NCBI RefSeq assembly: GCF_004342285.1
Contig: NZ_SMCV01000008.1
Coordinates: forward strand, 231,419-295,418
Length of the DNA stretch: 64,000 nucleotides
Source of the DNA: Klebsiella sp. BIGb0138
GTDB lineage: Bacteria; Pseudomonadota; Gammaproteobacteria; Enterobacterales; Enterobacteriaceae
Direction: 5' to 3'
Made by a program: the position numbers and the translations under genes. Of this stretch, positions 6,216 through 60,805 are shown in pieces. The notes beneath the pieces are model-generated. The model made no database searches, had not been told where the DNA came from, and saw only the letters and a program-made list of their open reading frames with translations. Positions within the stretch are counted from its first letter, which is position 1. The number at the start of each line of letters is the position of its first letter.

Positions 6216-7082
6216 ATGTCCAACGTACCATTATCCGGAAGCGCAACATTAGGCCATCGCCAGGTTTTTCGCCTGGGGTATGGAGCAATGCAGTTGGCAG
6301 GTCCAGGCGTATTCGGCCCGCCGGCCGATCCGGATAACGCCATTCGGGTACTGCAGGCGGCGGTGGAGGCGGGGGTCAACCATATTGATACCTCCGATTT
6401 TTACGGTCCGCATATTACCAACCAGCTGATTCGAAAAGCGCTGCATCCCTATGCAGACGATCTGTGCATCGTGACGAAAGTCAGCGCCCGCCGCGATGAA
6501 AAAGGCAACTGGCTGCCGGCGATGTCGCCCGAAGAGCTGACTCAGGCGGTGGAAGATAACCTGCGCAACCTGGGTCTTGATGTCCTGGAGGTGGTCAATC
6601 TGCGCAGCATGCTCGGCACCCATGGGCCGGTAGAGGGGTCGCTGGAAGCCCCGCTGACGACGCTGCTGGAGCTCAAGGAGCGCGGCCTGATCCGCCATAT
6701 TGGCCTCAGTAATGTCACCGCCAGACAGGTTGCGGATGCGCAAAAACTAACGCCCATTGTCTGCGTACAGAATCAATATAACGTCGCCAACCGCGAGGAC
6801 GATCGGCTGATCGACCAACTGGCGGCGCAGAATATCGCCTATGTCCCTTTCTTCCCGCTGGGGGGATTTACCCCGCTGCAGGCGCAGGAGCTTAACGATA
6901 TTGCCGCCGCGCTGGAGGCCACGCCGATGCAGATCGCGCTGGCCTGGCTGCTACAACGCTCGCCTAATATTCTGCTGATCCCCGGAACCTCCTCGCTCCA
7001 GCATCTGCAGGAAAACCTCGCCGCGGGCGCATTAACGCTCTCTCCCGAGGCCATTGCTACCCTGGATAAATTAACCGTCTGA
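6216..7082 (+). CDS. Aldo/keto reductase, YdbC/PdxI-like
   Basis: 288 aa from the ATG that follows GGAGAG; an upstream in-frame TTG is less likely. The (beta/alpha)8 fold is shown by GYGAMQLAGPGVFGPP, HIDTSDFYGP (catalytic Asp/Tyr) and IVTK (Lys). The position normally held by the catalytic His reads Asn (EVVNLRSM), as I recall for E. coli YdbC, the NADPH-dependent pyridoxal reductase PdxI. Cofactor loop LIPGTSS is present. It is likely a cytosolic pyridoxal or small aldehyde reductase. No operon partner is seen. Confidence 0.8.
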   Translation: MSNVPLSGSATLGHRQVFRLGYGAMQLAGPGVFGPPADPDNAIRVLQAAVEAGVNHIDTSDFYGPHITNQLIRKALHPYADDLCIVTKVSARRDEKGNWLPAMSPEELTQAVEDNLRNLGLDVLEVVNLRSMLGTHGPVEGSLEAPLTTLLELKERGLIRHIGLSNVTARQVADAQKLTPIVCVQNQYNVANREDDRLIDQLAAQNIAYVPFFPLGGFTPLQAQELNDIAAALEATPMQIALAWLLQRSPNILLIPGTSSLQHLQENLAAGALTLSPEAIATLDKLTV

Positions 7083-52704: not shown

Positions 52705-53369
52705 GGTTCCCGGGAATGGCAGCAGCCACATACCGTATTGCAACAGAGCACGTTTTTGAGCGCCGACCAAACATCCCGGTAGCCTGCCCGGGTGTTCAGA
52801 TACTCGCCTTGCGCTCCCGCTCATCGTGCGACAGATAAAAAGAACTTTCTCAGCAAAAACGAGACTCGATTCAATATCTATAATAACGCTGGTAAATCAA
52901 ATGACATTGCACCAGAAATCAATATTCCTGCCCATATAAGGTGCAAAAAGACAATTATCCTGGATGGGTTTAACGGTTTATTCCATGGCATCTTTTTTGC
53001 TTAAGTCCATTTCCCCGGATAGAGAGATGATGAATATGGCGTCTGGATTATGCAATTACAATATGAGCCATGATGCCCGCCCCTTCGTACAGATAGGCTC
53101 ATGGATAAGTCATACAGATGGCTATTTGCTTCAAAATTTTGCAGAGAGAATAGCCACTATCGCGATTAATCCTGTTTCCCATCAGGATCCAGATAAATCC
53201 TGTAAAGAGGCCCGCGCTGCCGAATATACCGGCGTGAATATCGCTGGACGCAAGCGGTTCCCGATTTATTTGTCCCTTCCTGTGTCCGCCCTAAAGTATT
53301 CAGGCGGCGATGATCAGACCGCTCTTTCACTTTATTCCCGATAAGCATATCCCTGTTAAGGAGGGCATC
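52705..53369. other. AT-rich stretch upstream of MFS gene
   Basis: 665 bp of lower GC than its surroundings. The only sizeable frame (52985-53344) is listed as a doubtful gene. Otherwise nothing recognisable; AAGGAGG at 53356-53363 is the MFS ribosome site. Confidence 0.4.
52985..53344 (+). CDS. Doubtful hypothetical protein
   Basis: 119-codon frame (MASFLLKSISPDREMMNMASGLCNYN) ending 25 bp before the MFS start. No recognised domain, no convincing ribosome site, mixed codon use. It may be a leader region or decayed gene. Kept at low confidence because it fills a large gap on the coding strand of the next gene. Confidence 0.22.
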   Translation: MASFLLKSISPDREMMNMASGLCNYNMSHDARPFVQIGSWISHTDGYLLQNFAERIATIAINPVSHQDPDKSCKEARAAEYTGVNIAGRKRFPIYLSLPVSALKYSGGDDQTALSLYSR

Positions 53370-54596
53370 ATGCGATATATTCCAGGGAGGATACCGGTTA
53401 TCCTTGCGATCGGTAATCTCTTCTTTACCTGCGCCGTATCCGTAGACCTGACGATTGCCACCCTGGTGGGCTATCAGCTGGCACCTTCTTGCGAGCTGGC
53501 CACGATCCCGTTTGCCCTCATTACTGTCGCCGGCGCGTTCTCGAGTATGTTTGCCGCCGGTATGATTGGTCGGGGAAACGAAAAAGCGGCGTTTATACTG
53601 GGGTCAGTATGCGGTACAGCCGGTGGCTTACTGTCATTTCTTGCCGTACTGAAGGCCAGTTTTCTACTGTTCTGCACTGGCTGCTTCCTTGTCGGCATCT
53701 ATCAAGCCTTCAGCCAGTATTATCGTCTGGTGGCTGCCGACCATTCCCCTGCCGAGGCAAAAGGTCAGGCGATTTCTCTGGTGATGGTTGGCGGAGTTGT
53801 CGCGGCGATCCTCGGGCCGCTTCTGACGATTATGGCCCGGGATATTCCCGGACTTCCTCGCTTTGCGGGTGTTTACCTCGTGGTGGCAGGGCTGGGGATT
53901 ATCTCCGCCCTAAACCTGGCGATATTCCTGCGCGGCGCTCAAAAGCATCCCCCGATTCCCGCTGCCGGCACCATCCCGATATCCTCCCCCACCAGCCGGG
54001 AGTTAATGCGCCGCCCGGATTATCGTACCGCCTGGCTTCACCTGGTGGCCGGGTCCCTGGTGATGCTTTTTCTGATGACGGCGGCGCCGCTTTCAGTTAC
54101 GCATCACCACACCATGAATGACGGTGCGCTGGTCATTCAGTTACATCTCCTGGGTATGTATGTCCCTTCGCTGTTTACCGGCATACTGATCAGGAAAGCA
54201 GGCCTGCCATCTCTGCTGTTCGCGGGCATCGCGCTCAACATAGCCGCTATCGCGATAAACCTGACCGGCGAATCCATGCTGGCATACAGTTCAAGCCTGC
54301 TTCTGGTCGGGGTCGGCTGGAATTTTATGTTTGTTGGCGGTTCAACGCTGCTCAGTCTCTCTTATCGTGATAATGAGCGAAAAAAAGCGCAGGGTCTGGC
54401 CGAAACCAGCCGCTTTGTTTTCTCCGCGATAGCCACATCAGGCGCGGGCGTAGGGCTGGCATTTCTGGGCTGGCAGCGACTGGGTCTGATGATGTTACCC
54501 GTTTTACTGATATGCCTGATTTCCACCTGGCAATACAAACGTTCTCTCAGAAAGTCCCCCATCAGCGCTTCCCATTCTGTTGAAGAAGGCTCTTAG
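53370..54596 (+). CDS. MFS transporter
   Basis: 408 aa from MRYIPGRIPVIL, with AAGGAGG 6 bp upstream; an earlier in-frame start lies inside the preceding frame. Twelve helices. Motif-A-like loop is weak (GMIGRGNEKAAF), so subgroup is unclear; ADHSPAEAKGQAISLVMVGGVVAAILGPLL is a clear motif C region (GPLL). Substrate unknown. No regulator is directly attached; the hxlR gene 147 bp downstream has its own operator. Confidence 0.78.
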   Translation: MRYIPGRIPVILAIGNLFFTCAVSVDLTIATLVGYQLAPSCELATIPFALITVAGAFSSMFAAGMIGRGNEKAAFILGSVCGTAGGLLSFLAVLKASFLLFCTGCFLVGIYQAFSQYYRLVAADHSPAEAKGQAISLVMVGGVVAAILGPLLTIMARDIPGLPRFAGVYLVVAGLGIISALNLAIFLRGAQKHPPIPAAGTIPISSPTSRELMRRPDYRTAWLHLVAGSLVMLFLMTAAPLSVTHHHTMNDGALVIQLHLLGMYVPSLFTGILIRKAGLPSLLFAGIALNIAAIAINLTGESMLAYSSSLLLVGVGWNFMFVGGSTLLSLSYRDNERKKAQGLAETSRFVFSAIATSGAGVGLAFLGWQRLGLMMLPVLLICLISTWQYKRSLRKSPISASHSVEEGS

Positions 54597-54673
54597 CCCG
54601 ACAATGGATAATGGCGTCGTTCGGGCCAATCGGCGCCTTCGCCGCCGTCGGGCCGCCGGTAGATCGTCCGCCA

Positions 54674-54698
54674 AGTAACTTGCATTTTGATAGTTACT
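54674..54698. promoter_or_regulatory. Candidate HxlR operator
   Basis: AGTAACT/AGTTACT, perfect 7-bp arms with an 11-bp centre, 46 bp before the hxlR start. Separated TTAC/GTAA-type arms are common for HxlR/MarR-like repressors. It should govern the hxlR-emrA-emrB-fabF unit. Confidence 0.55.
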
Positions 54699-54743
54699 AT
54701 GTCAATTTGCTCCAGAAAGCCACCTATCCATCCAGGCCAGCCC

Positions 54744-55301
54744 ATGAAAAATGAACCGCTTTGCAACGCTCCCTGCCCCATCGCCCGTAGCCTCGGGCGC
54801 ATCGGTGACAGCTGGAGCATGATGATCCTGCGCGACGCCTTCGCCGGCTTTACCCGCTTTGACGAGTTCCAGAAAAGCAGCAACGTCGCGCCCAATATTC
54901 TTTCGCGCCGTCTGAAGGCGCTGGTAGACGACGGCCTGCTGGAGAAGGTTTGCTACAGCAGCGCACCGCCGCGCTACGAATACCACCTCACGCAAAGCGG
55001 CCGCGATTTTCGCATGGTGCTGCTGGCGCTGGCGGAATGGGGTAACCGCCACTTCTCACCCGAAGGCCGTCAGATGCAGCTGGTGGAAAGTGAAACCCAG
55101 CGGCGCGTGGAGCCGATCATGGTCGATAAAGCAACCGGGGAAGAGATTGTCCCGGGTAAATACGCGATGGTGCCGGGCCCCGCGGCCTCACCGATGATGA
55201 AGTACCGTCACCAATATCTGCTGCGCAAGCGTGAGGGCGATAGCGGGCAAAAATTCCAACCCGAACTCTACAGAGATGCCAACAATGAATCCGGCCAGTA
55301 A
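54744..55301 (+). CDS. HxlR-family transcriptional regulator
   Basis: 185 aa from MKNEPLCNAPCPIARSLGRIGDSWSMMILRDAF, the standard HxlR opening with Cys residues that in some relatives sense thiol-reactive compounds (Cys 7 and Cys 11). The winged helix spans about 12-105 (SNVAPNILSRRLKALVDDGLLEK). A C-terminal tail of about 65 residues is longer than in minimal HxlR proteins. It overlaps emrA by 14 bp. Likely a repressor of the four-gene operon. Confidence 0.85.
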   Translation: MKNEPLCNAPCPIARSLGRIGDSWSMMILRDAFAGFTRFDEFQKSSNVAPNILSRRLKALVDDGLLEKVCYSSAPPRYEYHLTQSGRDFRMVLLALAEWGNRHFSPEGRQMQLVESETQRRVEPIMVDKATGEEIVPGKYAMVPGPAASPMMKYRHQYLLRKREGDSGQKFQPELYRDANNESGQ

Positions 55302-56328
55302 GAAAAGAGCCCTCGTTCTGGCGGCACTCGCCGTCGCCGCGTTGGCGGCGGCGAGCTACGGCGCTTACTGGTGGCATACCGGGCGCTTTATCCAGACGAC
55401 TGACGATGCCTATGTTGGCGGCGACATTAGCGCCATCTCCAGCAAAATCTCCGGCTATATTCAGCAGCTGGCGGTGCAGGACAATATGGCGGTAAAAAAA
55501 GGCGACCTGCTGATTCGCATTGATGACCGCGATTACCGCGCCGCGCTGGCAAAAGCCGCCGGAGAAGTGGCGGCGCAGCAGGCCGCGCTGGCCGATATCG
55601 TTGCCACCCGGCAGCTACAGCAGGCGACGATTGCCGGCTCTGCGGCCTCGCTACAGGCCGCGACGGCGGCGGCCGAAAAATCGGCTAACGACAACCGACG
55701 TTATAACGCCCTGGCAGCATCCAGCGCGATTTCCGCGCAAATCCGTGATAACGCCTCCGCCGATTATCGCCGGGCGCGCGCCGAGCAGGAGAAAGCCAAA
55801 GCGGAGAAAACCGCGGCCGAACGCCAGCTGGCGGTGCTGGATGCCCGCCAGCAACAAACGCTGGCCGCCCTGGCGCAGGCTCAGGCTAGCCTCGAGATGG
55901 CCACGCTGAACCTCAGCTATACCGAAATTCGCGCGCCGTTCGATGGCGTGATTGGCAACCGTCGCGCGTGGTCCGGTTCGTTCGTCAGCAGCGGCACGCA
56001 GCTGCTTTCCCTGGTTCCCGCGCACGGCCTGTGGATTGACGCCAACTTCAAGGAAAACCAGCTGGCGCATATGCGTGCCGGCCAGCCGGTGACCATCGTG
56101 GCCGACGTGCTGCCGAACCGCACCTTTAAAGGCTATGTCGCCAGCCTGGCGCCGGCGACCGGCTCGCGCTTCAGCATTCTTCCTGCGGAGAACGCGACGG
56201 GGAATTTCACGAAAATCGTTCAGCGCGTGCCGGTCCGCATTGCGCTGGAAGGAGAAGGCGCAAAACTTGACGTACTGCGCCCTGGGCTATCGGTGATCGT
56301 CACCGTGAACGAAAAGAGTCGCCGATGA
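55288..56328 (+). CDS. EmrA-like periplasmic adaptor (HlyD family)
   Basis: 346 aa from MNPASKKRALVL, within the hxlR 3' end. One membrane anchor (8-27), lipoyl halves (TTDDAYVGGDISAISSKISGYIQQLAVQDNMAVKKGDLLIRID and YTEIRAPFDGVIGNR) around a long Ala/Gln-rich helical hairpin, then beta-barrel. Joins the EmrB-like pump to an outer membrane channel, probably TolC because none is encoded here. Overlaps emrB by 4 bp. Confidence 0.87.
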   Translation, partial: NPASKKRALVLAALAVAALAAASYGAYWWHTGRFIQTTDDAYVGGDISAISSKISGYIQQLAVQDNMAVKKGDLLIRIDDRDYRAALAKAAGEVAAQQAALADIVATRQLQQATIAGSAASLQAATAAAEKSANDNRRYNALAASSAISAQIRDNASADYRRARAEQEKAKAEKTAAERQLAVLDARQQQTLAALAQAQASLEMATLNLSYTEIRAPFDGVIGNRRAWSGSFVSSGTQLLSLVPAHGLWIDANFKENQLAHMRAGQPVTIVADVLPNRTFKGYVASLAPATGSRFSILPAENATGNFTKIVQRVPVRIALEGEGAKLDVLRPGLSVIVTVNEKSRR

Positions 56329-57887
56329 GCAGCGCTCAGGCGCTGCCCGCCCCGCAGGGTCTGTCGATGCCGATGGCGAAGAAGATCTTCGCCTTCGCCA
56401 GCATGTGCGTGGGAATGTTTATCGCGCTGATCGATATCCAGATCGTGTCCGCCTCGCTGCGGGATATCGGCGGCGGCCTCTCGGCGGGCGACGATGAAAC
56501 CGTGTGGGTACAAACCAGCTACCTGATCGCCGAGATCATTATTATCCCGCTTTCCGGCTGGCTGGCGCGGGTCATGTCGACGCGCTGGCTGTTTGCCGCT
56601 TCCGCGGCGGGCTTCACGCTGATGAGTCTGCTATGCGGCTGGGCATGGAACATCCAGAGTATGATCGCCTTCCGCGCCCTGCAGGGACTGGCGGGCGGAT
56701 CGATGATCCCGTTGGTTTTCACCACCGCCTTCGCCTTTTTCCAGGGCAAACAGCGGGTCATCGCCGCCGCGACGATCGGCGGCCTGGCTTCTCTGGCCCC
56801 CACGCTTGGCCCGACGGTGGGCGGCTGGATCACCGAAAACTTCAACTGGCACTGGCTGTTCTTTATCAACGTCGTTCCGGGGATTTACATCGCGGTTGCC
56901 GTACCGCTGCTGGTAAAAGTGGATACCGCCGACCCCTCGCTGCTGCGCGGCGCGGATTATCTCAGTATCCTGCTGCTGGCGGCGTCTCTCGGTTGCCTGG
57001 AATATACCCTCGAAGAGGGCCCGCGCTGGGGCTGGTTTGACGACACCACCCTGGCGACCACCGGCTGGATCGCCCTGCTGTGCGGCGTGGCGTTTATTAT
57101 TCGCACCCTGCGCCATCCGCAGCCGGTCATGGATCTTCGCGCCCTGCGGGACCGAACCTTCAGCCTCGGCTGCTATTTCTCGTTTATGGCCGGGGTCGGC
57201 ATCTTCGCCACCATCTATTTAACCCCGCTGTACCTCGGTAGCGTGCGCGGTTTCAGCGCCCTGGAGATCGGCCTCGCGGTATTTTCCACCGGTCTGTTCC
57301 AGGTGATGTCGATCCCGTTTTATTCCTGGCTCGCCAACCGCGTCGACCTGCGCTGGCTGCTGATGGCCGGGCTGATCGGCTTTGCGGTTTCGATGTACAG
57401 CTTTGTCCCGATAACCCACGACTGGGGGGCCGACCAGCTGCTGCTGCCACAGGCTTTTCGCGGACTGGCGCAGCAGTTTGCCGTCGCGCCTACCGTAACC
57501 CTGACGCTGGGCAGCCTGCCGCCCGCCCGGCTTAAGCTGGCCTCCGGGCTGTTTAATTTAATGCGCAACCTCGGCGGCGCCATCGGCATCGCCCTGTGCG
57601 GAACCGTGCTTAACGACAGAACCAATTTGCATTACAGCCGTCTGGCGGATCATCTGAATAACGCCAACCTGGCAATGAGCGATTTTGTCCAGCGCAGCGC
57701 GGCAAACCTTGTCGCTCAGGGGATCTCCCCGGATGCCGCTCATACGGCGGCGCTGAAGAATCTTTCTGCTCTGACGCTGCGGGAGGCGCGAACGCAGGCA
57801 TTTTCCGATGCTTTCTATCTCATCATGATCGGTTTTTTGATCGCCGCGCTGCTGGTTCCCTTGATGAACAAGCCGCAGGCACACTGA
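56325..57887 (+). CDS. EmrB-like DHA2-family MFS drug pump
   Basis: 520 aa with 14 predicted helices. MFIALIDIQIVSASLRDIGGGLSAGDDETVWVQTSYLIAEIIIIPLSGWLARVMSTRW is the DHA2 opening with motif A-like loop; LAPTLGPTVGGWI is motif C. Proton-driven exporter of hydrophobic drugs or lipids with the EmrA-like adaptor. Cotranslated with emrA (ATGA overlap) and followed after 19 bp by fabF. Confidence 0.88.
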   Translation: MSSAQALPAPQGLSMPMAKKIFAFASMCVGMFIALIDIQIVSASLRDIGGGLSAGDDETVWVQTSYLIAEIIIIPLSGWLARVMSTRWLFAASAAGFTLMSLLCGWAWNIQSMIAFRALQGLAGGSMIPLVFTTAFAFFQGKQRVIAAATIGGLASLAPTLGPTVGGWITENFNWHWLFFINVVPGIYIAVAVPLLVKVDTADPSLLRGADYLSILLLAASLGCLEYTLEEGPRWGWFDDTTLATTGWIALLCGVAFIIRTLRHPQPVMDLRALRDRTFSLGCYFSFMAGVGIFATIYLTPLYLGSVRGFSALEIGLAVFSTGLFQVMSIPFYSWLANRVDLRWLLMAGLIGFAVSMYSFVPITHDWGADQLLLPQAFRGLAQQFAVAPTVTLTLGSLPPARLKLASGLFNLMRNLGGAIGIALCGTVLNDRTNLHYSRLADHLNNANLAMSDFVQRSAANLVAQGISPDAAHTAALKNLSALTLREARTQAFSDAFYLIMIGFLIAALLVPLMNKPQAH

Positions 57888-57906
57888 TATTACAGGAGGG
57901 TTAATT

Positions 57907-59181
57907 ATGGGCGTTTCAGCTAAACGTATTGTCGTGACCGGAATGGGGATCGTCAGCCCTCTGGGCTGCGGCGTACAGCACGTATGGCAGTCGCTGCTGG
58001 CAGGGAAGTCAGGTATTTCAAAGCTTAACGAGCAGATGGTCGAGGATATTCCCTGCAAAGTGGCCGGGCAGGTTCCGTCCGTCGAACAAGATCCGCTGCA
58101 TGGCTTCGATCCGCTGGCGGCCATCCCGGCGAAGGAACGCAAAAAAATGGATCGTTTTATCGAGTTTGCGCTGGTTGCCGCGCGTGAGGCGCTGACGCAG
58201 GCCGGGTGGTCGCCTGTATCGGCGGCAGCACAAGATCGCACCGCAACGGTGATCGCCACCGGGATCGGCGGGTTCAGCGAGATCGCCCACGCGGTACATA
58301 CCACGGACGAACGCGGGCCGCGCCGCCTGTCTCCGTTTACCATCCCCTCTTTTCTTGCCAACCTGGCCGCCGGACATGTGTCTATCGCCCACGGTTTCCG
58401 TGGCCCCATCGGCGCGCCGGTCACCGCCTGTGCGGCAGGCGCGCAGGCCATTGGCGATGCCGCACGAATGATCCGCAGCGGCGAGGCGGATATCGCCCTC
58501 TGCGGCGGCGCAGAAGCGGCGATCCATCGCGTTAGCCTTGCCGGGTTTGCCGCAGCAAGGGCGCTCTCCAGCGCCTCCAATGACCGGCCGGAAGCGGCTT
58601 CCCGCCCCTTTGACCGCGACCGCGACGGCTTTGTGATGGGAGAAGGCGCCGGGCTTATCGTGATTGAGTCGCTGGAACACGCGCTGGCGCGCGGCGCCAC
58701 GCCGCTGGCAGAGCTGGTTGGCTACGGCACCAGCGCAGATGCTTATCACCTGACCGCTGGCCCGGAAGACGGCAACGGCGCGCGTCGGGCCATGGAAATA
58801 GCCATTCGTCAGGCGGGGGTCGCAGCGGAAGAGATAGACCATATCAATGCTCACGCCACCTCGACTCAGGTGGGAGACAAAGGTGAACTGGCGGCGATAA
58901 AAAGCCTGTTCGGCACGCATCCCGTCGCCATTACGTCCACGAAATCAGCAACCGGCCATCTGTTGGGCGCGGCCGGCGGGATTGAGGCTATCTTCACCAT
59001 TCAGGCGCTGCGTGACCAGCTGGTGCCGCCGACGCTGAACCTGCATCATCCCGATGAGGATGCAGCAGGTCTGAACCTGGTGGCGCTGGAGGCTCGTCCA
59101 CAAAAGATGCGTTATGCGCTGTCGAACGGTTTTGGCTTTGGCGGCGTCAACGCCAGCCTGCTGCTGAAGCGCTGGGAATAA
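57907..59181 (+). CDS. Beta-ketoacyl-ACP synthase II (FabF-like), efflux-operon paralogue
   Basis: 424 aa. The catalytic triad of a KAS I/II is intact: Cys175 in TACAAG, His316 in NAHATST and His351 in KSATGHLLGA, plus the GFGGVNASLLL end. It would condense malonyl-ACP with acyl-ACP in the cytoplasm. It differs from the housekeeping fabF by context: no acpP or fabG nearby, and an AGGAGG site 19 bp after emrB. A role in a modified lipid or in bypassing a KAS inhibitor is inferred. Confidence 0.88.
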   Translation: MGVSAKRIVVTGMGIVSPLGCGVQHVWQSLLAGKSGISKLNEQMVEDIPCKVAGQVPSVEQDPLHGFDPLAAIPAKERKKMDRFIEFALVAAREALTQAGWSPVSAAAQDRTATVIATGIGGFSEIAHAVHTTDERGPRRLSPFTIPSFLANLAAGHVSIAHGFRGPIGAPVTACAAGAQAIGDAARMIRSGEADIALCGGAEAAIHRVSLAGFAAARALSSASNDRPEAASRPFDRDRDGFVMGEGAGLIVIESLEHALARGATPLAELVGYGTSADAYHLTAGPEDGNGARRAMEIAIRQAGVAAEEIDHINAHATSTQVGDKGELAAIKSLFGTHPVAITSTKSATGHLLGAAGGIEAIFTIQALRDQLVPPTLNLHHPDEDAAGLNLVALEARPQKMRYALSNGFGFGGVNASLLLKRWE

Positions 59182-59218
59182 TCGTTCAGTTCCCCTCAGG
59201 CAAAGGCCGGCGGGGGAC

Positions 59219-59233
59219 TTTCACCAGGTGAAA
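59219..59233. promoter_or_regulatory. Palindrome TTTCACCAGGTGAAA
   Basis: Perfect 7-bp arms with a central A in the fabF-ClC intergenic region. It resembles the palindrome upstream of the tetR gene at 45732 (TTTTACCAGGTAAAA) at 13 of 15 positions. Unknown regulator. Confidence 0.45.
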
Positions 59234-59307
59234 ACGCGTATTGATACTCACGGTTTAATTCAGTTTCTTTATGATTAAGTTTTCCTCCGCGTTAAGGTTC
59301 AACCACC

Positions 59308-60576
59308 ATGACCCAACCATCAGAGCCGACAGGTGCCAGATATTATTTAATCCGCCTGCTTGCTGTCGCGCTAACGGGGATCCTCGCCGGTATCGCCGGC
59401 ATGGCGCTGGCGCTGATTTTACATGGGGTCCAGCATCTGGCCTTCGGCTACAGCCTTGACCAGCTTGTCAGCAGCGAAACCTTTCTCGAGGGCGTTACCG
59501 GCTCGCAGCATCTGCGCCGACTGACGGCGATCATCGGCGGCGGGGCCGTCGCCGGTTTTGGCTGGTGGCTGCTGGCACGCTATGGCAGGAAGCGCGTCGC
59601 CATTGCCGCCGCCGTGGCGAACCCTTGCGCGCCGATGCCGGCGGGCACCACGACGATCCATGCCCTGCTGCAGATTATTACCGTCGCCCTCGGTTCCCCG
59701 CTGGGGCGTGAAGTCGCGCCACGCGAGATGGGTTCGCTGGCGGCGGGGATGGTGGCGCGCAAATGTGGTCTTGCTGAAAACGAAGCCCGGATTCTGATTG
59801 CCTGCGGCGCGGGAGCGGGCCTGGCAGCCGTGTATAACGTTCCGCTGGCGGGGGCGATATTTACGCTGGAAGTCCTGCTGCTGTCGTTCAGCTGGGAGAA
59901 AGCGCTGGCGGCGATAATAACCTCGGCGATAGCGGCGTGGGTCGCCACGCTGGGGCTGGGGGATGAATCTCAGTACCACTTCAGCTCAGCAGCGCTACCG
60001 CACTCCTTTATCGGCTGGGCGATAGTTGCCAGCCCGCTGCTGGGCGCCGCCGCCTGGCTGTTTCGCAAAGCCACGACCGGCGTACGCACCCGGGTCAAAA
60101 CCAACTGGCAGATGCCGGTATTTTGCCTGCTGGCATTCTCGGCACTTGCCGTGCTGAGCCTGTGGTTCCCACAATTACCGGGGAATGGTAAAGGGCCCAT
60201 GCAGCTGGCGATAAGCAGCGGCCTTGGTTTTGACGCTGCGGCACTCCTGCTGGCACTGAAGCTGGCGGTTATTCTTGCCGTACTGCGCGGCGGTGCCGAA
60301 GGCGGGCTGCTGACGCCGGGGTTAACGGTTGGCGCCCTGCTGAGCCTGCTGCTGGCCACCGGCTGGCAATATCTGTTCCCCGGCGGCGACGTGGGCAGCT
60401 TCGCCCTCGTCGGCGGGGCGGCGTTCCTTGCCGCCTCCATGCAGATGCCGATGACCGCCGTCGCGCTGGTGATGGAGTTCACCCATATGGATCACCGCTA
60501 TTTAGCCCCCGCGCTGCTGTGCGCCGCCGGGGCATTCATCACCTGCCGGGTACTGGATAAGAAATATGCATTCTGA
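59308..60576 (+). CDS. ClC-family chloride channel/transporter
   Basis: 422 aa with about ten helices. The selectivity-filter motifs are recognisable: GSPLGREVAPREMG (GREGP-like, keeping the gating Glu), GAGAGLAAVYNVPLAGAIFTLEVL and GAEGGLLTPGLTVGALLS. It probably exchanges chloride or fluoride for protons. The V in place of G in GREGP is a divergent feature. CCACC with weak ribosome site precedes the ATG. Confidence 0.82.
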   Translation: MTQPSEPTGARYYLIRLLAVALTGILAGIAGMALALILHGVQHLAFGYSLDQLVSSETFLEGVTGSQHLRRLTAIIGGGAVAGFGWWLLARYGRKRVAIAAAVANPCAPMPAGTTTIHALLQIITVALGSPLGREVAPREMGSLAAGMVARKCGLAENEARILIACGAGAGLAAVYNVPLAGAIFTLEVLLLSFSWEKALAAIITSAIAAWVATLGLGDESQYHFSSAALPHSFIGWAIVASPLLGAAAWLFRKATTGVRTRVKTNWQMPVFCLLAFSALAVLSLWFPQLPGNGKGPMQLAISSGLGFDAAALLLALKLAVILAVLRGGAEGGLLTPGLTVGALLSLLLATGWQYLFPGGDVGSFALVGGAAFLAASMQMPMTAVALVMEFTHMDHRYLAPALLCAAGAFITCRVLDKKYAF

Positions 60577-60805
60577 ACTCCGCGGGTCGCCCTCATCACC
60601 TGACCGGCCGATGCGTAAACGGTTCTTTGCCGTCGTCGCAGGCCCGGTCAGAGACGTTTTAACGTTTAGTGTGAATCTCAGCGCGGAGAACACAGTCTGT
60701 TTGCGGAAGCTATTTGTAAATAATATCGTGGGTGCCAACACGGCCGATCGTTCATCTGCCCTGCTACCGATTTAAGCCTACATCACTCAGTTGAGGAGCC
60801 TGGTC

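What the first reader, a model, noticed from the sequence alone, without database searches (positions are those of the whole stretch)
54674..59181. hxlR-emrA-emrB-fabF: a drug pump operon that carries its own fatty-acid synthase condensing enzyme
Four genes are packed on one strand (14-bp overlap, 4-bp overlap, 19-bp gap) behind a perfect 7+7 inverted repeat. A complete FabF-type enzyme with Cys175/His316/His351 ends the unit, far from any fab cluster. Established knowledge: EmrAB exports thiolactomycin in E. coli, and spare KAS enzymes confer self-resistance in producers of KAS inhibitors. Inference: the operon is an inducible two-part defence, efflux plus an insensitive target, against a natural KAS inhibitor. 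Alternatively FabF makes an acyl chain exported by EmrAB.
Basis: partly seen in the sequence, partly recalled or inferred. Interest (0 to 1): 0.75.

Follow-up and report, generated by a model that had tools for sequence, protein, structure and literature searches.

The report
Drug-pump operon with spare fatty-acid enzyme
In this Klebsiella-like bacterium a regulator gene, a two-part drug pump and an extra, diverged copy of a fatty-acid-building enzyme form one packed unit whose enzyme recurs across many bacteria with other regulators and other pumps, and it likely works as an emergency kit that would pump out an unknown inhibitor while the spare enzyme keeps fatty acids being made.

Summary
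The four genes, their spacing and the 7+7 repeat are real. The FabF is not a housekeeping copy: it belongs to a separate, well-supported clade that coexists with a housekeeping-type FabF in 14 of 14 genomes chosen. In 93 of 106 clade loci a local regulator (HxlR, TetR or MarR) sits beside it, against 1 of 43 control FabF loci. A pump was recognised in the unit in 35 of 106: EmrAB-type in 12, RND-type in 23. Regulator and pump type changed several times on the tree while the FabF stayed. The inverted repeat is an operator-like site (AGTNACT-N11-AGTNACT) shared from Enterobacterales to Rhizobiales. The closest known case is the Pseudomonas putida fabF2 operon (TetR, efflux genes, fabF2), where repression, co-transcription and replacement of FabB (FabF only weakly) were shown in print. 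The HxlR/EmrAB form was not found described in the papers searched. Best reading: an inducible bypass of blocked fatty-acid elongation plus export, probably answering a thiol-reactive compound. Not shown: the inducer, the pump substrate, or inhibitor insensitivity. A clade member was crystallised with platencin, which argues against general insensitivity. Membrane-lipid adjustment is the main rival.

The parts
54674..54698 (.). Predicted HxlR operator AGTAACT-N11-AGTTACT (7+7 inverted repeat), likely autoregulatory
   Evidence: perfect repeat; only match in window, 0 in 100 shuffles; 31 of 48 HxlR loci have a site matching at least 11 of 12 fixed bases; 0.07% of single-base shuffles do
54744..55301 (+). 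HxlR-family regulator, 185 aa, with Cys7 and the conserved Cys11 in the CPxA motif
   Evidence: PF01638, 74.5 bits, cut-off 20.8; Cys11 position kept in 32 of 33 aligned HxlR proteins; relative of 4gcv, 151 bits
55285..56328 (+). EmrA-type periplasmic adaptor, 347 aa
   Evidence: HlyD families; TIGR00998 272 bits, below its cut-off of 390.8
56325..57887 (+). EmrB-type DHA2 MFS permease, 520 aa
   Evidence: TIGR00711 399.3 bits, cut-off 230.2; best-scoring paralogue in the own genome 30% identical
57907..59181 (+). Diverged FabF (fabF2-type clade), 424 aa, Cys175/His316/His351, with signature changes L111F, F133T, P272G, S397G, T403V in E. coli FabF numbering
57893..57898 (+). Ribosome-binding site AGGAGG before fabF
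   Evidence: Read
54672..59292 (.). Block conserved as a unit in seven relatives of the genus: begins at the operator (54672-54674), ends 40-209 bp after fabF; the fetched upstream flanks do not match, downstream ones match again in two
   Evidence: L115, L201-L204, L206 over the whole block; L205 without emrAB; L202 and L203 match again downstream

Best explanation
The locus is one packed unit of an HxlR regulator, an EmrAB-type pump and a diverged FabF, and it is predicted to work as an inducible bypass of blocked fatty-acid synthesis: the regulator would let go of its operator when an inhibitor of the elongating enzymes FabB/FabF (likely thiol-reactive) arrives, the pump would export it, and the extra FabF would take over chain elongation. 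Shown here: the gene unit, the conserved operator-like site, the separate FabF clade with intact catalytic residues, its coexistence with a housekeeping-type FabF, its frequent pairing with a local regulator, and changes of regulator and pump type around it. Shown in print for the P. putida relative: local repressor, co-transcription, replacement of FabB by derepressed FabF2, and (when highly expressed) of E. coli FabB and FabF. Inferred: repression by this HxlR, thiol sensing through Cys11, export of the same compound by EmrAB, and relief of inhibition by the extra enzyme (through a reshaped pocket, through dosage, or both).
For: Separate clade, support 1.0, 38 of 85 rows, again 100* with 104 of 114 rows. 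Regulator beside the FabF in 93 of 106 clade loci (43 HxlR, 51 TetR, 2 of these both, 1 MarR) and 1 of 43 controls; 8 of the 13 misses have a regulator beyond the rule. HxlR genes are rare: 3 in the own genome, 1 in the Yersinia genome G201, and that one lies beside this fabF. Pumps in 35 of 106. On a FastTree tree the pump label changes at least 11 times and the regulator label 5 to 10 times, depending on whether mixed and hand-set labels are counted; the window's EmrAB group lies in a starred group with RND-linked rows. Operator-like site shared by gamma- and alphaproteobacteria. Housekeeping-type FabF also present in 14 of 14 genomes. All 7 EmrB relatives of 86% or more in 198 genomes lie in front of a clade fabF. 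emrAB is missing in L205 and L119 while hxlR-fabF stays. An ACP-like small gene within 3 kb in 1 of 105 clade loci (and that one doubtful) against 37 of 43 controls, so these are not fab clusters. PMC8319022: repressor, co-transcription, replacement. PMC3447867: PA1374, the P. aeruginosa HxlR homologue, induced by the bromofuranone BF8 (an electrophile, recalled). Signature changes lie in regions that touch cerulenin and the thiolactomycin tail. E. coli emrAB is tied to thiolactomycin resistance (title of Furukawa 1993 in a reference list).
Against: No inhibitor, inducer or transport has been tested for this form in anything I saw. A clade member, 62% identical, was crystallised with platencin (4f32), so the clade is not closed to every KAS inhibitor. 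In P. putida, FabF2 could not elongate C16:1 to C18:1 and had weak FabF activity, so takeover would be partial; loss of fabF2 raised resistance to ampicillin, erythromycin and carbenicillin; no KAS inhibitor is mentioned as tested in what I read; deleting the exporter genes did not alter the fabB phenotype. The BF8 text names PA1374 but not PA1373 (fabF2). F133T resembles the Val of FabB, so the pocket change may serve substrate choice. In 71 of 106 clade loci no pump was recognised in the unit. The pump is only distantly related to E. coli EmrB (234.5 bits against a cut-off of 925).
Confidence: 0.5

Rival explanations
1. Membrane-lipid adjustment: the extra FabF is a FabB/FabF hybrid switched on to restore unsaturated fatty acids under envelope or solvent stress, and the pump removes the stressor or fatty acids.
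For: P. putida FabF2 replaces FabB and restores unsaturated fatty acids when its repressor is lost; the authors suggest compensation of defects in unsaturated fatty acid synthesis (PMC8319022). F133T resembles FabB Val at that site. One TetR of an RND-fabF unit weakly resembles a fatty-acid FadR regulator (34.8 bits, far below its cut-off of 200).
Against: No desaturase, fabA or fabB among the 20 neighbour proteins scanned with Pfam; other neighbours were not scanned that way. Pairing with multidrug-type pumps of different families and with a Cys-bearing HxlR that best matches redox regulators, below their cut-offs, fits a chemical threat better. The own genome has a FabF and FabB-like synthases already.
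Confidence: 0.28
2. Making and exporting an acyl product: FabF builds a special chain that EmrAB secretes.
For: FabF follows a pump in one unit; in 18 of 106 clade loci an SDR reductase directly precedes fabF.
Against: An ACP-like small gene within 3 kb was seen in 1 of 105 clade loci and not in the window, against 37 of 43 controls; hxlR-fabF and TetR-fabF pairs without recognised pump or SDR are common (47 of 106); P. putida FabF2 works in normal fatty-acid synthesis.
Confidence: 0.07
3. Ordinary multidrug-pump operon in which fabF is a hitch-hiker without shared function.
For: Gene order varies; emrAB is absent in two relatives; P. putida authors call the efflux pump unrelated.
Against: It is the FabF with its regulator, not the pump, that is constant; regulator pairing in 93 of 106 and repeated changes of pump type around it (at least 11 on the tree) are not expected of a passenger.
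Confidence: 0.13

Closest known systems
Pseudomonas putida F1 fabF2 operon, Pput_2425-2422 (PMC8319022; abstract, passages and section 9 seen)
   Same: Local repressor first, two efflux genes, fabF2 last, co-transcribed; FabF2 about as far from E. coli FabF (45.7% in the paper) as six RND-linked Pseudomonas clade members are from Klebsiella FabF (46.6-48.5%)
   Different: Regulator is TetR (the paper says all such clusters have TetR) and here HxlR; pump here is EmrAB-type. The F1 protein itself was not compared here; kinship is inferred from gene order and distance
Pseudomonas aeruginosa PA1374-PA1373 (HxlR regulator and fabF2)
   Same: HxlR of the same subfamily; the HxlR beside a Pseudomonas protegens clade fabF (L014) is nearly the same as 4gcv, which I recall to be PA1374; PA1373 is named fabF2 in PMC4597187 (table passages)
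   Different: No pump recognised in the ten Pseudomonas loci with hxlR and fabF divergent; PA1373 sequence not compared here
KAS genes in thiotetronate antibiotic clusters (tlmF, tueF; PMC5518548, passages)
   Same: Extra FabB/FabF copy proposed as self-resistance
   Different: There inside or near a biosynthetic cluster of the producer; here with a regulator and a pump; no such cluster was looked for in the window
E. coli EmrAB
   Same: Adaptor plus DHA2 permease, family-level match
   Different: Below the cut-offs of the EmrA and EmrB models; MarR-type regulator in E. coli (recalled), HxlR here

Membership tests
FabF / beta-ketoacyl-ACP synthase II | Equivalog model TIGR03150 over its cut-off and the catalytic Cys-His-His-Lys set | tested here: met
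   558.2 bits, cut-off 493.75; Cys163, His303, His340, Lys335 kept in 104 of 104 clade rows
fabF2-type clade as defined here | Monophyletic group apart from housekeeping FabF, with signature residues | tested here: met
   Support 1.0 / 100*; F111 104/104, T133, G272, G397, V403 103/104 each, against 0 of 44 controls for each
P. putida fabF2-type operon | TetR repressor heading the unit | tested here: not met
   Regulator here is HxlR
P. putida fabF2-type operon | Efflux genes between regulator and fabF2, same strand | tested here: met
P. putida fabF2-type operon | Sequence kinship with the F1 FabF2 protein itself | not tested
   F1 sequence not fetched; only distance to FabF and gene order compared
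P. putida fabF2-type operon | Repression and co-transcription | not testable with these tools
   Only gene overlap, spacing and a conserved operator-like site
HxlR regulators | PF01638 over cut-off | tested here: met
   74.5 bits, cut-off 20.8
Thiol-sensing HxlR (YodB/HypR kind) | Conserved N-terminal Cys | tested here: met
   Cys11 position kept in 32 of 33
Thiol-sensing HxlR (YodB/HypR kind) | Response to thiol-reactive compounds | not testable with these tools
   Indirect only: PA1374 induced by BF8 (PMC3447867)
EmrAB pump | EmrB subfamily TIGR00711 | tested here: met
   399.3 bits, cut-off 230.2
EmrAB pump | EmrA subfamily TIGR00998 and EmrB NF000391 over cut-off | tested here: not met
   272 against 390.8 and 234.5 against 925
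KAS-inhibitor self-resistance enzyme | Reduced inhibition of the enzyme | not testable with these tools
   Residue changes only; platencin complex of a clade member speaks against one compound class

The most novel reading that the evidence does not exclude
A portable 'spare target' resistance cassette: one FabF lineage has spread over Enterobacterales, Pseudomonas, comamonads and Alphaproteobacteria as a switchable replacement for FabB and FabF, re-plugged again and again into different regulators (HxlR, TetR, MarR) and pumps (EmrAB, RND), and in some Rhizobiaceae even joined by a spare FtsZ. Its breadth would reveal natural, probably electrophilic, inhibitors of bacterial fatty-acid elongation common in soil and on plants.
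Probability: 0.38. Interest if true: 0.82.

Novelty: new variant of a known kind. Interest (0 to 1): 0.6.

Why it matters
If true, a pre-existing, partly plasmid-borne way round inhibitors of FabB/FabF, a target class pursued for new antibiotics, is already widespread, and its best-studied member was filed as a cryptic lipid gene. The clade's residue signature and its operator give a simple way to find such units and to ask which compounds switch them on, which would point to unknown natural fatty-acid-synthesis inhibitors.

Tried and rejected
Tried: papers on an hxlR-fabF-efflux link (listings and, for some, passages); only the P. putida fabF2 paper matched. PMC10855805 (Klebsiella pump KpsrMFS; passages and two sections) cites PA1374 but its gene table is another locus. 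PMC10315480 (S. meliloti; passages) names a fabF2 listed with acpXL and other lipid A genes, which I take to be a different gene. PMC6907878 used the PA1374 promoter only as a negative control (passages). One search for Phe133/Leu111 gave nothing of use. Viral contigs: 67 FabF relatives, none above 57% identity, so no sign of phage carriage. E. coli genomes: no match to 53000-60800 at near identity.

Considered and rejected: that the FabF is a recent copy of the host's own (48-50% identity); that the unit is a biosynthetic cluster (no ACP-like small gene within 3 kb of the unit); that EmrB-FabF is a general fusion protein (one open frame in L010; no second EmrB-FabF fusion among the 120 listed of 881 hits). 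The platensimycin/platencin-insensitive reading was dropped. The Fisher value ignores relatedness and is not used as proof; after clustering at 85% identity 37 of 45 representatives have a regulator by the automatic rule. A first count of 11 regulator changes included L065, two mixed labels and hand-set labels; without L065 it is 10, without mixed labels 8, without hand-set ones 5. Limits: the TetR, MarR and RND models used for neighbours were built from neighbours of this clade, so the control rate may be low by construction; the controls are mostly alphaproteobacterial FabF genes in their fab operon; 34 of 111 inner branches of the tree are open. L065 is a control-side FabF with an adjacent HxlR and operator site, an exception kept in the counts.
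Full report
Observation. The unit is as described: hxlR 54744-55301, emrA 55285-56328, emrB 56325-57887 and fabF 57907-59181, overlapping or 19 bp apart, behind AGTAACT-N11-AGTTACT at 54674-54698. The spaced pattern occurs once in 64 kb and in none of 100 shuffles. Family matches are HxlR, HlyD-type adaptor, DHA2 MFS and ketoacyl synthase. The host genome has a housekeeping-type FabF on another contig, 48% identical.

The FabF is a lineage of its own. A tree of 85 rows puts 38, window included, in one clade with support 1.0; a larger FastTree tree (114 rows) repeats this with 104 rows at 100*. By record titles it spans Enterobacterales, Pseudomonas, comamonads, Rhizobiales, Acetobacteraceae and others. 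In 14 of 14 clade-bearing genomes chosen a housekeeping-type FabF (45-55% identical) is present too. Distribution is patchy, own genome included in each count: 26 of 198 genomes of the host's family at E up to 1e-120, two of them with stops inside; 8 of 20 of its genus. In one Pseudomonas genus sample it is 65 of 119. It also lies on plasmids: 120 of 72,556 plasmid records match at E up to 1e-100, 50 of them Pantoea; 15 of the 120 are under 60% identity and one is of chromosome size. Four of the records were opened (one without annotation).

Neighbours. Contexts used: the loci, all 25 further loci, 34 of the 65 Pseudomonas loci and 6 more from the genus, and 4 plasmid stretches. They hold 108 clade fabF genes (two in L205) with the window. 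The window and L010, both hxlR-emrA-emrB-fabF, were left out of the automatic count. Of the other 106, 93 have a regulator by rule: 43 HxlR, 51 TetR, 2 of them both, 1 MarR. Of 13 misses, 8 have a regulator beyond the rule (L023, L036, L037, L038, L043, L139, L141, L142) and 5 have none recognised (L029, L035, L187, L208, L210). Among 43 control FabF loci 1 has one (L065). A pump is in the unit in 35 of 106, 12 EmrAB and 23 RND, and in none of 43 controls. An SDR reductase directly precedes fabF in 18 of 106. A small ACP-like frame lies within 3 kb in 1 of 105 clade loci, and that frame is doubtful; in the controls it is 37 of 43; around the window unit there is none. HxlR genes are few: 3, 4, 15, 1 and 15 in five genomes, and the single one in the Yersinia genome G201 lies at the fabF. 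The neighbour models were trained on such neighbours, so the control rate may be somewhat low; only 20 neighbour proteins were scanned with Pfam.

Exchange of parts. On the tree the pump label changes at least 11 times. The regulator label changes 10 times without L065, 8 without the two mixed labels, and 5 if hand-set labels are dropped too. A pump beyond 2.5 kb or a contig end counts as none, so the pump figure is rough. The window's EmrAB group (13 rows) sits inside a starred group of 31 rows whose other members carry mostly TetR plus RND. In L205, of the same genus, hxlR and fabF remain but emrA and emrB are gone, and a second, RND-linked clade fabF faces it; L119 also lacks emrAB. In six other relatives of the genus (L115, L201-L204, L206) the conserved DNA starts at 54672-54674, the operator, and ends at 59221-59390; the fetched upstream flanks do not match the window, and L202 and L203 match again downstream. 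All 7 EmrB relatives of 86% or more found in 198 genomes lie before a clade fabF; two at 71% and 62% do not. So the FabF with its regulator looks like the core, the pump like an exchangeable partner.

Operator. In 48 HxlR loci (window and L065 included, many of them close relatives) the best AGTNACT-N11-AGTNACT site upstream matches all 12 fixed bases in 23 and at least 11 in 31; in single-base shuffles 0.07% reach 11. The site is found from Klebsiella relatives to Rhizobium (L027), Bradyrhizobium (L028) and Gluconacetobacter (L026). The HxlR Cys in the CPxA motif is kept in 32 of 33 aligned proteins. Binding was not tested.

Active site. In 104 clade rows the catalytic Cys163, His303, His340 and Lys335 (E. 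coli FabF numbering) are invariant and Phe400 is kept in 103. Signature residues, in 0 of 44 controls: F111 (104/104), T133, G272, G397 and V403 (103 each). The literature places these regions: loop 2 pivots on a Pro-Pro motif, Pro272-Pro273, and caps the GFGG gate (PMC7138838, passages); the thiolactomycin side chain is wedged between peptide bonds 271-272 and 391-392 of FabB (PMC2680598, one passage); I108F in the acyl pocket gives cerulenin resistance in B. subtilis (PMC3996569, passages). That L111 and F133 line the acyl tail is recalled, not found in a call. Threonines 270, 305 and 307, recalled as platensimycin contacts, are unchanged. The nearest solved structures, 4ddo and 4f32 from Burkholderia vietnamiensis, carry the signature, and 4f32 is a platencin complex (model pLDDT 87.6). 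Insensitivity to platencin is therefore unlikely; effects on cerulenin or thiolactomycin are open.

Literature. In P. putida F1 the TetR gene Pput_2425, two efflux genes and fabF2 form an operon; loss of the repressor derepresses it, fabF2 is co-transcribed, derepressed FabF2 replaces FabB, and highly expressed fabF2 restores E. coli fabB and fabF functions, though FabF activity is weak and C16:1 is not elongated (PMC8319022; abstract, passages, section 9). The authors call the pump unrelated, state that all such clusters have a TetR, and propose compensation of unsaturated fatty acid synthesis. Loss of fabF2 raised resistance to three antibiotics that are not KAS inhibitors. In P. aeruginosa persister cells, PA1374 was among genes induced more than twofold by bromofuranone BF8 (PMC3447867, section read); PA1373 is not named there. 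PA1373 (fabF2) rose 10.9-fold in airway mucus and its transposon mutant had a growth index of 1.48 against 2.46 (PMC4597187, table passages). That 4gcv is PA1374 is recalled; one search shows 4gcv nearly identical to the HxlR beside a Pseudomonas clade fabF, and one search shows the title of a PA1374 structure paper. EmrAB and thiolactomycin resistance in E. coli: title only. I found no description of an HxlR-EmrAB-FabF unit in searches.

Judgement. A regulated spare FabB/FabF enzyme with a changeable pump fits an inducible bypass of inhibited fatty-acid elongation best, with likely thiol sensing by HxlR. The inducer, the pump substrate and the enzyme's inhibitor profile are unknown. Membrane-lipid adjustment remains a serious rival because the P. 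putida enzyme restores unsaturated fatty acids. The form is a new variant of the fabF2 operon kind.

Noticed in passing
L030:8304-9353, L031, L034, L024 (after fabF): In four Rhizobiaceae loci an extra FtsZ follows the clade fabF directly (in two pieces in L024), beside a TetR gene and RND or MATE pump genes; three of these genomes were checked and also have other FtsZ copies. A second spare target in one unit, unexplained.
   Followed up: partly
L010:5441-8272: In Pantoea rodasii emrB and fabF share one open frame of 943 aa without a stop between them, with an internal Shine-Dalgarno and ATG near 7007; no second such fusion was among the 120 listed hits.
   Followed up: partly
L205: One genome of the host's genus holds two clade fabF units facing each other: hxlR-fabF (emrAB gone) and an RND-fabF unit.
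   Followed up: partly
L138, L139, L142, L206: Broken fabF copies of this clade in units whose other genes are recognisable, so the gene is sometimes lost.
   Followed up: no
L065: Stenotrophomonas FabF outside the clade with an adjacent HxlR and a full operator site, perhaps an independent pairing.
   Followed up: no
L140 (Pantoea vagans C9-1 plasmid pPag1): TetR-fabF on a 168 kb plasmid; 50 of 120 matching plasmid records are Pantoea, of which only this one was opened.
   Followed up: partly
L141 (Pseudomonas oryzihabitans plasmid): TetR, RND pump, oxidoreductase, a DHA2 MFS permease and fabF in one strand run, two pump types with one fabF.
   Followed up: no
window 59308-60576: Chloride-channel gene (Voltage_CLC) 126 bp after fabF; outside the conserved block in most relatives, with a short match left in L202.
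   Followed up: partly
G000:C4:352265-355102: Two further ketoacyl synthases close together in the host genome, each 33% identical to the window FabF, possibly a polyketide-type pair.
   Followed up: no
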